Origin: Bifidobacterium breve
GTDB taxonomy: Bacteria; Actinomycetota; Actinomycetes; S36-B12
DNA: 38,799 nt
Direction of reading: 5' to 3'
Assembly: GCA_945877545.1 (NCBI GenBank)
Contig: CAMCSO010000007.1
Coordinates: 1 to 38,799 of the forward strand
Shown here: piece after piece, positions 7,969 to 38,686 of the stretch
Numbering within the stretch: position 1 is the stretch's first letter
Layout: each line of letters opens with the position of its first letter
Notes under the pieces: model-generated
Told to the model about the DNA's origin: nothing
The model's input: the letters and a program-made list of their open reading frames with translations, nothing else
Databases searched by the model: none
Translations under genes and position numbers: made by a program

Positions 7969-8373
7969 TCAATAGCTCGCTAGGTCAATCCACTGCAGCC
8001 CGGTAACCGAACTGAAACTCCGATCTGCGGAGACAGCTTCCCAACCATGGGCGATCGCAACGGCTGCGACCACCGAGTCGACGGCGCCTAAGGACGACGT
8101 TTGCGACCAGATGCGCAAGCCTTCGAGCACATCGCGGGTACTGACGACGGTAAGTGGTCCGAGGAGCTCGGCGAACCGCTCCGTTTGCGCGAAGGCGTCG
8201 GCGCGGTCACGGCGACGAGCCCGCACGTGCGCATATTCCTGCAACACTTCCGGGGTGGTGGTTGCGCTGACGCGAGACGCAACGACATCGTGCAGGAGTC
8301 GAACCGCCGGCTCACGAAGCGGGTGGTCTGCGCCTGTTGCGTACACCAGGACCGAGGTATCAAGGACGAGCAT
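7969..8373 (-). CDS. vapC: VapC-type PIN-domain ribonuclease toxin
   Basis: The 134-residue protein is a single PIN domain. Acidic active-site candidates are D5 (MLVLDTSVLVYA), E42 or E46 (PEVLQEYAHV), D99 (GAVDSVVAAVAI) and D117 (VSADRSF), the pattern expected for Mg-dependent VapC RNases. Family toxins cleave tRNA or rRNA and are neutralised by the partner VapB. The ATG overlaps the stop of the upstream antitoxin gene by one base (TGATG), the classic coupled order antitoxin then toxin. All acidic positions are intact, so it is expected to be active when freed. The target RNA cannot be inferred. Confidence 0.88.
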   Translation of the reverse strand: MLVLDTSVLVYATGADHPLREPAVRLLHDVVASRVSATTTPEVLQEYAHVRARRRDRADAFAQTERFAELLGPLTVVSTRDVLEGLRIWSQTSSLGAVDSVVAAVAIAHGWEAVSADRSFSSVTGLQWIDLASY

Positions 8374-8630
8374 CAGGAATCCAGAAATCGTGAGCCACGG
8401 ATTTCATCGAGTTCTAGGGCCAAATCTGCTGGCTTGGGTACCGACATCGGCCCGTCCGCGAGAATCGCGTCGAGCAATGCAGCTTTGCGGATATCGGTAC
8501 CTGTCCACATGTGATCGACGGCTTCACGGATCAAGGCCCCAACACTGCGCCCCTGCGCCTTTGCCCGCTGGGTCAGCCGGTCGTATTGCTCCTCATCGAG
8601 CAGGATTTGCAGGCGGTGGGACATCGGCAT
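8373..8630 (-). CDS. vapB: VapB-type ribbon-helix-helix antitoxin
   Basis: This 85-residue protein begins MPMSHRLQILLDEEQYDRLT and continues AKAQGRSVGALIREAVDHM, a ribbon-helix-helix DNA-binding fold (about residues 4-45). The acidic C-terminal tail (about 46-85) would wrap the toxin. Family members repress their own operon through operator half-sites near the start. The gene lies 24 nt downstream of the VWA gene and is coupled to vapC by TGATG. Two ATG codons (8630 and 8624) are possible starts; no clear Shine-Dalgarno precedes either. Confidence 0.85.
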   Translation of the reverse strand: MPMSHRLQILLDEEQYDRLTQRAKAQGRSVGALIREAVDHMWTGTDIRKAALLDAILADGPMSVPKPADLALELDEIRGSRFLDS

Positions 8631-36153: not shown

Positions 36154-36185
36154 GCGTCGGTGTTGCTGGGCTAAGACACCGACGC
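36154..36185. terminator. Convergent (bidirectional) hairpin
   Basis: A perfect 10-bp stem (GCGTCGGTGT at 36154-36163 with 36176-36185) encloses a 12-nt loop that holds the stop codon of the reverse-strand LuxR remnant. It lies 14 nt after the 40-residue peptide gene, so it can end transcription from both sides. There is no T run on either side. Confidence 0.6.
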
Positions 36186-36669
36186 TCTCGCATGCGGAGC
36201 CCAGCCGTTGGGTTGCAGGATTCCGAGTGCAATCGCGTGCTGCACTGCGACCTTGCGATCCGGCGACCTCATAGCGCGCAGGAGGCGTTGGACGTCCTGT
36301 TTGACGGTCGATACCGAGACCCCGAGGGTGGCCGCGATCGAGTCGTTTGTTTTGTCCTGCGCAAGGAGTCTGAGCACGGCGTGCTGCCGGGTCGACAACT
36401 GCAAGCCTCCGTCATGGTCGGTGGTCACCGGTTCCGTGAGTCTCGTTCCGATGCAGGATGACGGGTGTGTCAACCACAGTCCGAGGACGGCAGCGAGGGC
36501 ATCAAGCAGAGCGAAGTCGCTAGGTCCCCAGATGAGTGCGATCCGAGATGAATCCGAAGGCTCCGATGCTCACACCTTGGCTCGAGATTGGGACACTCAC
36601 GAGTTCGAGCGCGGAAGTTGTCAACCCTGCTGGCCTGGCGGTTGTCAGATGCCACGCCCACGGTGATGC
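36171..36669 (-). pseudogene. Broken GAF-LuxR transcriptional regulator
   Basis: The C-terminal 100 residues form a LuxR-type helix-turn-helix: STRQHAVLRLLAQDKTND, SIAATLGVSVSTVKQDVQRLL and then KVAVQHAIALGILQPNGW. Reading upstream past the TTG at 36473, the same frame continues as WGPSDFALLDALAAVLGLW, the end of a GAF domain. It then needs a one-base shift at a run of four C (36526-36529; G on the coding strand) to join SVPISSQGVSIGAFGFISDR in another frame. Removing one base gives a smooth GAF sequence ...SDRTHLGPSDFALLDALAAV. Farther upstream the DNA is occupied by the forward RelA/SpoT-like gene, so the GAF domain also lacks its N-terminal part. The intact HTH piece alone could be translated from TTG 36473, but no good ribosome binding site is seen. 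Confidence 0.68.
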
Positions 36670-36670
36670 G

Positions 36671-37369
36671 ATGAGCGACCTGACGACCTCTCGGGTGAAC
36701 CGCGCCGGCCAGCGGATCCGCCGGATTGCTCGAGGGCAGGTGACCGATTCGGAGAGACTCGCCGCGGCCATTGACACCCTGGTGGGCTTTCGCGCACTGC
36801 ACGCGATCTCTCTCCAGACGGCGACCAGAGGCTTGCGTTCAGCCGTCACCTCTGAGCGACTTCCTGTTCAGGTGTCGCAGAGGCTGAAGCGAGTGTCCAC
36901 GATCATTGACAAGTTGCTGCGCGAGCCAACCCTGCCGCTATCCCGAATGCAGGACATCGGCGGCTGCCGTGCCATTCTGCCGACGATTCCCGATATCCGA
37001 GCAGTCCAAGAGCGGCTGGCCCGCCCCTCTCGGGCCCGCGAACTGGTGGCTGTCAGCGACTACATTGAGGATCCCCGTGATTCGGGGTATCGCGGAGTTC
37101 ATCTGATCATGCTCTATCGAGGCAGAATCGTTGAGATCTAGCAGCGGACGCCTGTGATGCATGAGTGGGCTGCCACCGTGGAGCGCCTGACTGATCGCTA
37201 CGGCGAGGACTACAAGGGGGCGTGGCATCCCGTTGTGGGTCCGTTCCTAGCGGTGGTTTCCGAAGCCATGTCCATCGAGGAGTCCGGGGGATCCGTTCGG
37301 GCGTCGCTGGTGACAGAAGTCGACCGTCAGCGCATAATAATGTCTAGGTATCTGCAGGGGAGGCATTAA
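36671..37369 (+). pseudogene. RelA/SpoT synthetase-domain protein interrupted by amber codon
   Basis: ATG 36671 begins MSDLTTSRVNRAGQRIRR. The frame is a RelA/SpoT nucleotide pyrophosphokinase domain without a hydrolase domain: RLKR (R71-R74), MQDIGGCRAIL (D95), SGYRGVHLI (Y140, the G-loop) and VEI (E155, the metal-binding glutamate). Directly after VEI the codon is TAG (37139-37141), where relatives have Q in VEIQLRT. After it the same frame continues QRTPVMHEWAATVERL and on to TAA at 37367, 75 further codons. So one CAG-to-TAG change splits the protein just after its last catalytic residue. The family makes (p)ppGpp or, in toxSAS toxins, pyrophosphorylates tRNA. As it stands the gene is inactive unless the amber codon is read through. 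A small gene starts at its stop codon (TAATG). Confidence 0.75.
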
Positions 37370-37620
37370 TGGACGACGCGATTCAGCATTACCTCCTTGT
37401 CTACAACCGTCATTCTGGACTGCTCGAAGATCTTCGAGAGTTCGGCATGGACTCGGCGGGAGCACTCGAGGCGTACGCCGCGGCCGAGGAAGACTTTCGT
37501 GACAGCGAATGGATGCAGGTCGTTCTGATCGGCAGCGACTCACTCGACACTGTGCGCATCACCCATCCAAACTACTTCGCCCCCGCTGGTAACCGATCGA
37601 AGTACTTCGCTGGCCTGTAG
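37369..37620 (+). CDS. Small acidic protein coupled to the RelA/SpoT-like gene
   Basis: This 83-residue protein begins MDDAIQHYLLVYNRHSGLLE and continues with an acidic helical segment (AYAAAEEDFRDSEW) and WMQVVLIGSDSLDTVRITHPNYF. Similar small proteins with a YLLVYDR start and an SLDxxRxxHxxYF end are, from memory, often next to actinobacterial RelA/SpoT-domain genes; some longer family members carry this as a C-terminal domain. The ATG overlaps the upstream TAA (TAATG) and has GGGGAGG 5 nt before it, so it can be translated independently of the broken gene. A partner or antitoxin role is an inference from coupling and acidity only. Confidence 0.7.
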   Translation: MDDAIQHYLLVYNRHSGLLEDLREFGMDSAGALEAYAAAEEDFRDSEWMQVVLIGSDSLDTVRITHPNYFAPAGNRSKYFAGL

Positions 37621-37684
37621 CACACGGCCCCGGCGAGACCGAGGACGGTTGCTGGGGAACACGGATGTGAGGACCCGCAACTCC

Positions 37685-37906
37685 TCACTGCCGTGCAGTC
37701 GGCCCACACCGATGAGAGGTATCGTTGTCGTCCTTACCGAGCAACTCCCATCGCCATTCCACCTGATCTAGCGAGGGGTAGAGGTTTGTAACGATCGTCG
37801 TGAGTGGTTGGTGCAGCGTCCTGCGGCCGAGACGTGCCCAATGGCCCTCGACCAGCGTCCCCGGATTGGACTCAATCAAATCACCTTGTGTTACGTTGTG
37901 ATTCAT
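37685..37906 (-). CDS. Possible small divergent protein
   Basis: A 73-codon reverse frame from ATG 37906 reads MNHNVTQGDLIESNPGTLVE, then LGRRTLHQPLTTIV and DQVEWRWELLGK. Its ATG overlaps the forward ATG at 37905 (both within CATG), so both genes would have to be leaderless from one point, which is unlikely for both. Third-position G+C is lower than in confident genes here. No family recognised. If it is not real, the 284-nt gap 37621-37904 holds only the regulatory repeat described separately. Confidence 0.25.
   Translation of the reverse strand: MNHNVTQGDLIESNPGTLVEGHWARLGRRTLHQPLTTIVTNLYPSLDQVEWRWELLGKDDNDTSHRCGPTARQ
37879..37903. promoter_or_regulatory. Candidate operator of the RHH/DUF433 gene
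   Basis: AATCAC (37879-37884) and its complement GTGATT (37898-37903) flank two direct TTGTG units spaced 10 nt apart, ending one base before the ATG at 37905. A TACGTT -10-like box (37892-37897) lies inside, consistent with a leaderless start and autorepression by the RHH protein. Support is from position and symmetry only. Confidence 0.4.
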
Positions 37907-38333
37907 GTCGATTTCCCAGTTGTCAGTGCAGAGGTCGTTCCGCATCTCCGCTCGAACGAGTGAGTTACTTGACTCACTTGCCGCGACATCGAATGAGTCC
38001 CGCAACAGCCTCGTCGAGCAATTGCTCGGGGAGGCTCTGCGGCTGGCGCGACACCCGTTGGTGCGGTTTCGTTCGGGGGCCGCTGGTCGCCGTGAGCCGT
38101 ACCTGACCGGAACCCGCCTGCTCGTTCGCCAGGTCGTGGCGCAACTCAGGGATGCGCGGGGCGACGTTGACGAGGTGGCCGGCTACCTCGGGATCGAGCG
38201 GCCCTTCGTACTCGCAGCCCGCGACTACTACGCCGACTTCGGCGCTGAGATTGATGTGGACGAAGAATGGGCGGCTTCGGTCGAAGCAAGTGAACATGCC
38301 CGCTGGGAGCGGCAGCAGGCTGCCCTCGCGTGA
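37905..38333 (+). CDS. RHH plus DUF433 antitoxin-like protein
   Basis: The 142-residue protein has an N-terminal ribbon-helix-helix (about 8-48: SVQRSFRISARTSELLDSLA, then SRNSLVEQLLGEALRL). It then has a DUF433-type winged-helix module (about 60-120) with RREPYLTGTRLLVRQVVAQL, AGYLGIERPFVLAARDYYADF and an acidic C-terminus (IDVDEEWAAS). DUF433 proteins are the usual partners of DUF5615 PIN-like proteins, and the DNA-binding part suggests autoregulation. The fusion of RHH and DUF433 in one chain is noteworthy. The stop overlaps the next GTG by 4 nt (GTGA). No Shine-Dalgarno precedes the ATG. Confidence 0.8.
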   Translation: MSISQLSVQRSFRISARTSELLDSLAATSNESRNSLVEQLLGEALRLARHPLVRFRSGAAGRREPYLTGTRLLVRQVVAQLRDARGDVDEVAGYLGIERPFVLAARDYYADFGAEIDVDEEWAASVEASEHARWERQQAALA

Positions 38334-38686
38334 GGCTCACCCTCGATCACCACTACTCCCCGTTGATCGCGGTCGGACTGCGTGATCGAGGTCATGATGT
38401 GCGTGCGGTCAGCGAACTCGGCTGGCAGTTGGAGGACGACGAGCCGCTGTTGGCGCGATGCAGTGCTGAGGATCTTGCACTCGTGACGAACAACGTCGTG
38501 GACTTCGCAGTCATCATCCAGCGATGGGCCGATGAGAGCCGGGTCCATGCAGGCCTGATCTTCACCTCCGATGCCAGATGGCCTCGGCGAAGGGACATGA
38601 TCGGCCGATTCGTCGATGCCCTTGACACATTGCTGACGGGCAACCCCGGCACGAGGAGTCTCGCCGGCCGCATCCACTGGCTGTGA
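38330..38686 (+). CDS. DUF5615 PIN-like toxin
   Basis: The 118-residue protein is of the DUF5615 (Mut7-C-like PIN) type. It has LDHHYSPLIAVGLRDRGHDV (D6 is an active-site candidate), a DDEPLLARCSAEDLALVTNN segment and VVDFAVI with a conserved aspartate, then ARWPRRRDMIGRFVDALDTL. Such proteins are thought to be VapC-like nucleases controlled by the upstream DUF433 partner. The GTG start overlaps the antitoxin stop (GTGA), the classic coupled order. All expected acidic positions appear intact. Confidence 0.8.
   Translation: MRLTLDHHYSPLIAVGLRDRGHDVRAVSELGWQLEDDEPLLARCSAEDLALVTNNVVDFAVIIQRWADESRVHAGLIFTSDARWPRRRDMIGRFVDALDTLLTGNPGTRSLAGRIHWL

What the first reader, a model, noticed from the sequence alone, without database searches (positions are those of the whole stretch)
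36671..37620. Amber-interrupted RelA/SpoT pyrophosphokinase coupled to a small acidic partner (toxSAS-like module?)
Seen: the synthetase domain has its catalytic and G-loop residues (D95, Y140, E155) but TAG (37139-37141) replaces the glutamine of the VEIQLRT block; the frame then continues for 75 recognisable family codons. A second small gene starts at the final stop (TAATG) with its own strong ribosome binding site. Known: stand-alone synthetases include toxSAS toxins with adjacent small antitoxins, and toxin genes are often inactivated. Inference: the pair is a candidate toxin-antitoxin or alarmone module, either freshly inactivated by one C-to-T change or relying on amber readthrough. It lies next to an RHH/DUF5615 pair and a broken regulator, as in a defence or accessory island.
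Basis: partly seen in the sequence, partly recalled or inferred. Interest (0 to 1): 0.72.

Follow-up and report, generated by a model that had tools for sequence, protein, structure and literature searches.

The report
Broken toxSAS toxin with intact antitoxin
This is a two-gene bacterial toxin-antitoxin pair of the known CapRel anti-phage family whose toxin gene has been cut short by a stop codon while its antitoxin gene is intact; it is a nice but ordinary example of toxin decay, with no sign that the stop is read through.

Summary
At 36671-37369 a RelA/SpoT-fold pyrophosphokinase is interrupted by one in-frame TAG (37139-37141, residue 157), and an intact 83-residue gene starts on its final stop (37369-37620). 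Together they match one model, PADLOC PDC-S33 / phrog_4773. The nearest solved structure is the tRNA pyrophosphokinase CapRel-SJ46, by sequence and by predicted fold. Of 67 related genome loci, 22 carry the small gene separately, directly downstream, and 40 carry it fused. The window is thus a bicistronic CapRel-type toxSAS module, the form already reported as usual in Actinobacteria (PMC9712102). Relatives have glutamine at residue 157; no amber-suppressor tRNA was found among 43 tRNA matches; TAG ends 8 of 27 likely genes in the window; residue 158 is also aberrant. Inactivation is far likelier than readthrough. Other members have independently broken toxins with intact antitoxins. Two congeners lack the module at the same site but have the RHH/DUF5615 pair, so it is a small lineage-specific insertion, not part of an island shared with that pair. 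Verdict: new, inactivated member of a known kind; an assembly error cannot be excluded.

The parts
36671..37138 (+). N-terminal 156 codons of the toxSAS toxin (toxSYNTH domain), ending just after the catalytic E155
   Evidence: PF04607 E 6.7e-10 for this part alone; alignment A2
37139..37141 (+). in-frame TAG at residue 157, a glutamine in every relative aligned over the block
37142..37369 (+). remaining 75 codons of the toxin frame plus TAA; conserved but untranslated unless the stop is passed
   Evidence: conserved H164, W166, E171, K182
37357..37363 (+). GGGGAGG, ribosome binding site of the antitoxin gene
   Evidence: sequence
37310..37338 (+). sigma-70-like promoter match (GTGACA-17-CATAAT) inside the toxin frame upstream of the antitoxin; one found against 0.5 expected, so weak
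37369..37620 (+). antitoxin gene, 83 aa, homologous to the C-terminal (pseudo zinc finger) domain of fused CapRel and to ATphRel; carries HPNYF in place of the YXXY motif
36608..37886 (.). lineage-specific segment holding the module; congener G002 has about 316 bp of other sequence here
36171..36607 (-). remnant of a LuxR-type regulator, intact (221 aa) in congener G002; N-terminal part lost and frame disturbed in the window

Best explanation
The locus is a bicistronic (unfused) CapRel-type toxSAS toxin-antitoxin module that arrived in this lineage as a segment of about 1.3 kb and whose toxin gene has since been inactivated by a nonsense mutation, while the antitoxin gene has stayed intact. 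In an intact module of this kind, by analogy with CapRel-SJ46 and FaRel2, the toxin transfers pyrophosphate from ATP to the 3' CCA end of tRNA and stops translation when a phage is sensed, and the antitoxin blocks the ATP site with its (Y/H)XXY motif. Here the product should be a 156-residue fragment that lacks the end of the active-site strand and all that follows, so no catalysis is expected. The antitoxin has its own ribosome binding site and can still be made; it may be a harmless leftover or may give cover against related incoming toxins. Shown here: homology, gene order, interruption, absence of the module at the site in congeners, normal use of TAG. Inferred: chemistry, phage defence, loss of activity.
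For: One PADLOC model and one PHROG cover both genes in order. The best PDB match of the toxin is CapRel (E 8e-18 single sequence, 4e-45 profile); fold search of the toxin model (pLDDT 94) puts CapRel first, TM 0.79-0.83. The antitoxin profile matches Phrann gp30 (hhalign 97%, 9e-12) and the C-terminal domain of the fused proteins (98.5%, 4e-15); its fold search also puts CapRel first, but weakly (E 0.22, probability 0.75). From the toxin side 26 other unfused loci all have the antitoxin just downstream; from the antitoxin side 28 of 31 loci have a toxin beside or fused to it. Toxin tree: window nested among unfused forms, one fused/unfused split, support 99/98. TAG: glutamine in every relative aligned over the block; no CUA anticodon among 43 tRNA matches; TAG ends 8 of 27 likely genes in the window. 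Comparable breaks elsewhere with intact antitoxin: L066, L069, L031, L034, L137, L175.
Against: The genome is a 307-contig draft, 90.5% complete, so the TAG could be an assembly or consensus error and a suppressor tRNA could lie in a gap. The frame after the stop is well preserved, as it would be under readthrough or in an intact gene. No copy closer than about 50% protein identity was found, so neither the age of the stop nor selection on the two halves can be measured.
Confidence: 0.82

Rival explanations
1. The TAG is a sequencing or assembly error and the module is intact and functional in the organism.
For: Draft genome in 307 contigs; apart from the stop and residue 158 the toxin has no more outlier residues than other members; the frame after the stop is conserved.
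Against: It would need a substitution-type error, and the aberrant residue 158 directly after it would have to be a second error or a real change. Interruptions also occur in isolate genomes, so real breaks are common in this family.
Confidence: 0.12
2. Functional amber readthrough: the full toxin is made at low level from the TAG codon, keeping the toxin scarce relative to the antitoxin.
For: The frame stays open and conserved for 75 codons; the stop is followed by CAG, which recalls half of the UAG-CAR-YYA leaky context (own knowledge; described for viruses of eukaryotes).
Against: No suppressor tRNA among 43 tRNA matches, TAG is an ordinary stop in the window, no relative has a stop at this position, no RNA structure beyond chance after the stop (z 0.5), and Q158 replaces a hydrophobic residue of the core strand.
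Confidence: 0.03
3. The toxin is dead, but the antitoxin is kept by selection as protection against related toxSAS toxins carried by phages or plasmids (anti-addiction). This is an addition to the best explanation rather than its opposite.
For: Toxin breaks with intact antitoxin recur (L066 in-frame deletion of the active-site block, L069 frameshift, L175 nonsense) and two antitoxin homologues have no toxin beside them (L159, L174); unfused modules occur in viral contigs.
Against: The toxin frame is nearly three times longer, so the excess of toxin breaks is not significant on its own (six breaks all in the toxin: about 0.16 by length); no selection test was possible.
Confidence: 0.15

Closest known systems
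Unfused CapRel/ATcapRel toxSAS pairs of Actinobacteria (described in PMC9712102)
   Same: [quoted passage not shown] toxin catalytic columns conserved.
   Different: Toxin interrupted by TAG at residue 157 with an aberrant residue 158; no close sequence relative known (best about 50% identity).
CapRel-SJ46 (fused toxin-antitoxin, PDB 7ZTB, 9ERV)
   Same: toxSYNTH domain 34% identical over 188 columns, same predicted fold, same antitoxin domain by profile.
   Different: Two genes instead of one; H instead of Y at the first position of the YXXY motif; toxin broken.
PhRel/ATphRel of mycobacteriophage Phrann (gp29/gp30)
   Same: Bicistronic, toxin first; antitoxin profile match 97% with the same T-H-x-x-Y-F motif; toxin profile match 99%.
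   Different: PhRel is a long, divergent branch, 292 residues long; it is intact.
PADLOC PDC-S33 / phrog_4773
   Same: Single models covering both genes (PDC-S33: toxin E 8e-51, antitoxin E 2e-7).
   Different: The models describe a fused protein of about 350 residues.

Membership tests
toxSAS toxin (RelA/SpoT-type small pyrophosphokinase without hydrolase domain) | PF04607 synthetase domain with conserved catalytic columns and no hydrolase domain | tested here: met
   PF04607 is the only Pfam match over its cut-off; catalytic columns invariant in A2
toxSAS toxin (RelA/SpoT-type small pyrophosphokinase without hydrolase domain) | complete, translatable toxin | tested here: not met
   TAG at residue 157; hence filed as an inactivated member, not as a working toxSAS
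CapRel subfamily | toxSYNTH domain closest to CapRel among solved toxSAS/SAS structures | tested here: met
[quoted passage not shown]
   (and 58 for ATphRel); structural match weak
CapRel subfamily | YXXY neutralisation motif | tested here: inconclusive
   HPNY in the window; 46 of 48 unfused hits have HxxY, 52 of 57 fused hits have YxxY or FxxY (of the five fused exceptions, L069 is an unfused antitoxin misclassified because of a frameshift); Phrann gp30 also has H
CapRel subfamily | toxicity by tRNA pyrophosphorylation, neutralised by the partner | not testable with these tools
   needs expression assays
CapRel subfamily | phage-triggered defence | not testable with these tools
   needs phage infection assays
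Amber-readthrough gene | suppressor tRNA, or stop conserved in relatives with conserved context | tested here: not met

The most novel reading that the evidence does not exclude
Unfused CapRel-type modules repeatedly lose the toxin and keep the antitoxin, because a solitary HXXY antitoxin acts as an immunity factor against toxSAS systems carried by phages and plasmids; the window is one such case caught soon after the toxin died.
Probability: 0.15. Interest if true: 0.5.

Novelty: new member of a known kind. Interest (0 to 1): 0.27.

Why it matters
It places an actinobacterial pair in the CapRel anti-phage family and shows one way such modules end: the toxin is lost, the antitoxin stays. If the recurrent toxin loss with antitoxin retention holds up in a wider survey, solitary CapRel-type antitoxins would be a testable class of anti-toxSAS factors. 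The clean H/Y difference in the neutralisation motif between unfused and fused forms is a ready handle for comparing in-trans and in-cis neutralisation.

Tried and rejected
Recoded TAG: rejected. RNA element promoting readthrough: no structure beyond chance after the stop. Restart after the stop: a GTG-ATG pair lies at 37154-37159, but no ribosome binding site is visible before it. A closer copy with or without the stop: none in 395 genomes of the class, in the other held genomes of the genus, in plasmids and phages or viral contigs. A dN/dS test was not attempted because the nearest relative is about 50% identical. Direct sequence matches of the antitoxin to solved structures: none credible. 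In some searches the window toxin was read from an alignment file that holds gap signs; the other queries and the realignment in the tree were not affected. One search stopped with an error and was repeated. L168 is a doubtful antitoxin hit (no motif) and is not counted as a solitary antitoxin.

Full report
What is there. The + strand frame 36671-37369 encodes a 232-residue RelA/SpoT-type pyrophosphokinase interrupted once, by TAG at 37139-37141 (residue 157), and closed by TAA; an 83-codon gene starts inside that final stop (TAATG, 37369-37620) behind GGGGAGG. Pfam RelA_SpoT matches the read-through protein at 1.1e-15 and the part before the stop alone at 6.7e-10. The genome (G000, 2.97 Mb, 307 contigs, 90.5% complete) has two other RelA_SpoT matches on separate contigs, both scoring far above this gene, and only this one antitoxin homologue.

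What family it is. PADLOC model PDC-S33 and phrog_4773, each of about 350 positions, match the toxin over their first 220 positions and the small gene near their end. In PDB the toxin is closest to CapRel-SJ46, by single sequence (8e-18) and by a profile of 18 toxins (4e-45; housekeeping synthetases follow at 5e-22 and FaRel2 at about 1e-4). The AlphaFold model of the toxin (pLDDT 94, pTM 0.86) has CapRel as best structural match, TM 0.79-0.83. The antitoxin model (pLDDT 85) also has CapRel first, but weakly, E 0.22; the stronger evidence for the antitoxin is profile comparison: 97%, 9e-12 to Phrann gp30, and 98.5%, 4e-15 to the C-terminal domain of the fused family.

Gene order. Of 67 genome loci found with the toxin, 22 have an antitoxin homologue as a separate gene directly downstream and 40 have it fused. 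With viral contigs and genomes of the class, 26 unfused loci besides the window were seen, all with the antitoxin. Searching from the antitoxin side, 28 of 31 loci have a toxin homologue beside or fused to it. The toxin tree separates fused from unfused forms by one branch (99/98) and nests the window among unfused Actinomycetota and Chloroflexota members; its nearest are L008, L009 and L010. The literature describes exactly this: CapRel is mostly fused except in Actinobacteria, where the pair is usually unfused (PMC9712102). The published mechanism is tRNA pyrophosphorylation, blocked by the antitoxin's YXXY motif at the ATP site and released by phage proteins (PMC9712102, PMC11782079). The unfused antitoxins here have H-x-x-Y (46 of 48 hits: 45 T-H, one S-H) where fused ones have Y or F (52 of 57); the Y355 equivalent is invariant.

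The stop. Every relative aligned over the active-site block has glutamine at 157, and 158 is L, V, I, F or once A, never Q; only the distant, poorly aligned fragment L006 departs. So the window copy differs twice in a row. No tRNA with a CUA anticodon was found among the 43 tRNA matches, TAG closes 8 of 27 likely genes in the window, and the RNA after the stop folds no better than shuffles. The rest of the frame is no more deviant than other members (five outlier positions, against zero to six in other full-length members), so the stop is probably recent. Without a closer relative its age and the selection on both halves cannot be measured.

Toxin loss elsewhere. Other members have broken toxins and intact antitoxins: L066 (Brevibacterium isolate) lacks the active-site block by an in-frame deletion, L069 (Enteractinococcus isolate) is frameshifted, L175 (IMG/VR contig) has an in-frame TAA, L031, L034 and L137 are frameshifted; L159 and L174 are antitoxin homologues without a visible toxin. 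Some of the frameshifts are in metagenome-assembled genomes and may be errors. The toxin frame is nearly three times longer than the antitoxin, so this bias is suggestive only.

Site. In two congeners the flanks are about 87-93% identical at the DNA level, but the module is missing: G002 has about 316 bp where the window has about 1280, G003 about 349 where the window has about 1930. G002 carries there an intact 221-residue LuxR-type gene of which the window keeps only a damaged C-terminal part. The RHH/DUF5615 pair downstream is kept in G002 and, over the part that aligns, in G003. The module is therefore most simply a small lineage-specific insertion, not one part of an island shared with that pair.

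Judgement. The locus is an inactivated bicistronic CapRel-type toxSAS module. Its antitoxin is intact and probably expressible, with its own ribosome binding site and a weak internal promoter match. Whether it is a remnant or protects against related toxins is open.

Noticed in passing
A1 alignment; L134:2171-2383; unfused loci such as L008-L021: Unfused antitoxins carry T-H-x-x-Y-F where fused CapRel C-terminal domains carry mostly A-Y-P-N-Y-F; only three fused viral loci (L183, L184, L186) have H.
   Followed up: partly
L066:2962-3534: Brevibacterium sp. HMSC07C04 toxin has an in-frame deletion of the whole G-loop/catalytic block with an intact antitoxin after it.
   Followed up: partly
L175:2231-2794: A viral-contig toxin of this family is interrupted by an in-frame TAA near residue 188, again with an intact antitoxin.
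   Followed up: partly
L159:1498-1746 and L174:2986-3216: Antitoxin homologues with no recognisable toxin upstream: possible solitary antitoxins.
   Followed up: no
window 36171-36607: LuxR-type regulator remnant; the intact 221-residue gene sits at this site in congener G002, so the insertion coincides with loss of its N-terminal part.
   Followed up: yes
window 37905-38686: RHH-like/DUF5615 (PIN-like) pair, present at the same site in congener G002 and in part in G003, so probably older there than the toxSAS insertion.
   Followed up: partly
window 7969-8630: ORF pair on the minus strand (134 and 85 aa) that by its sequence looks like a PIN-domain toxin with a ribbon-helix-helix antitoxin; not searched.
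   Followed up: no
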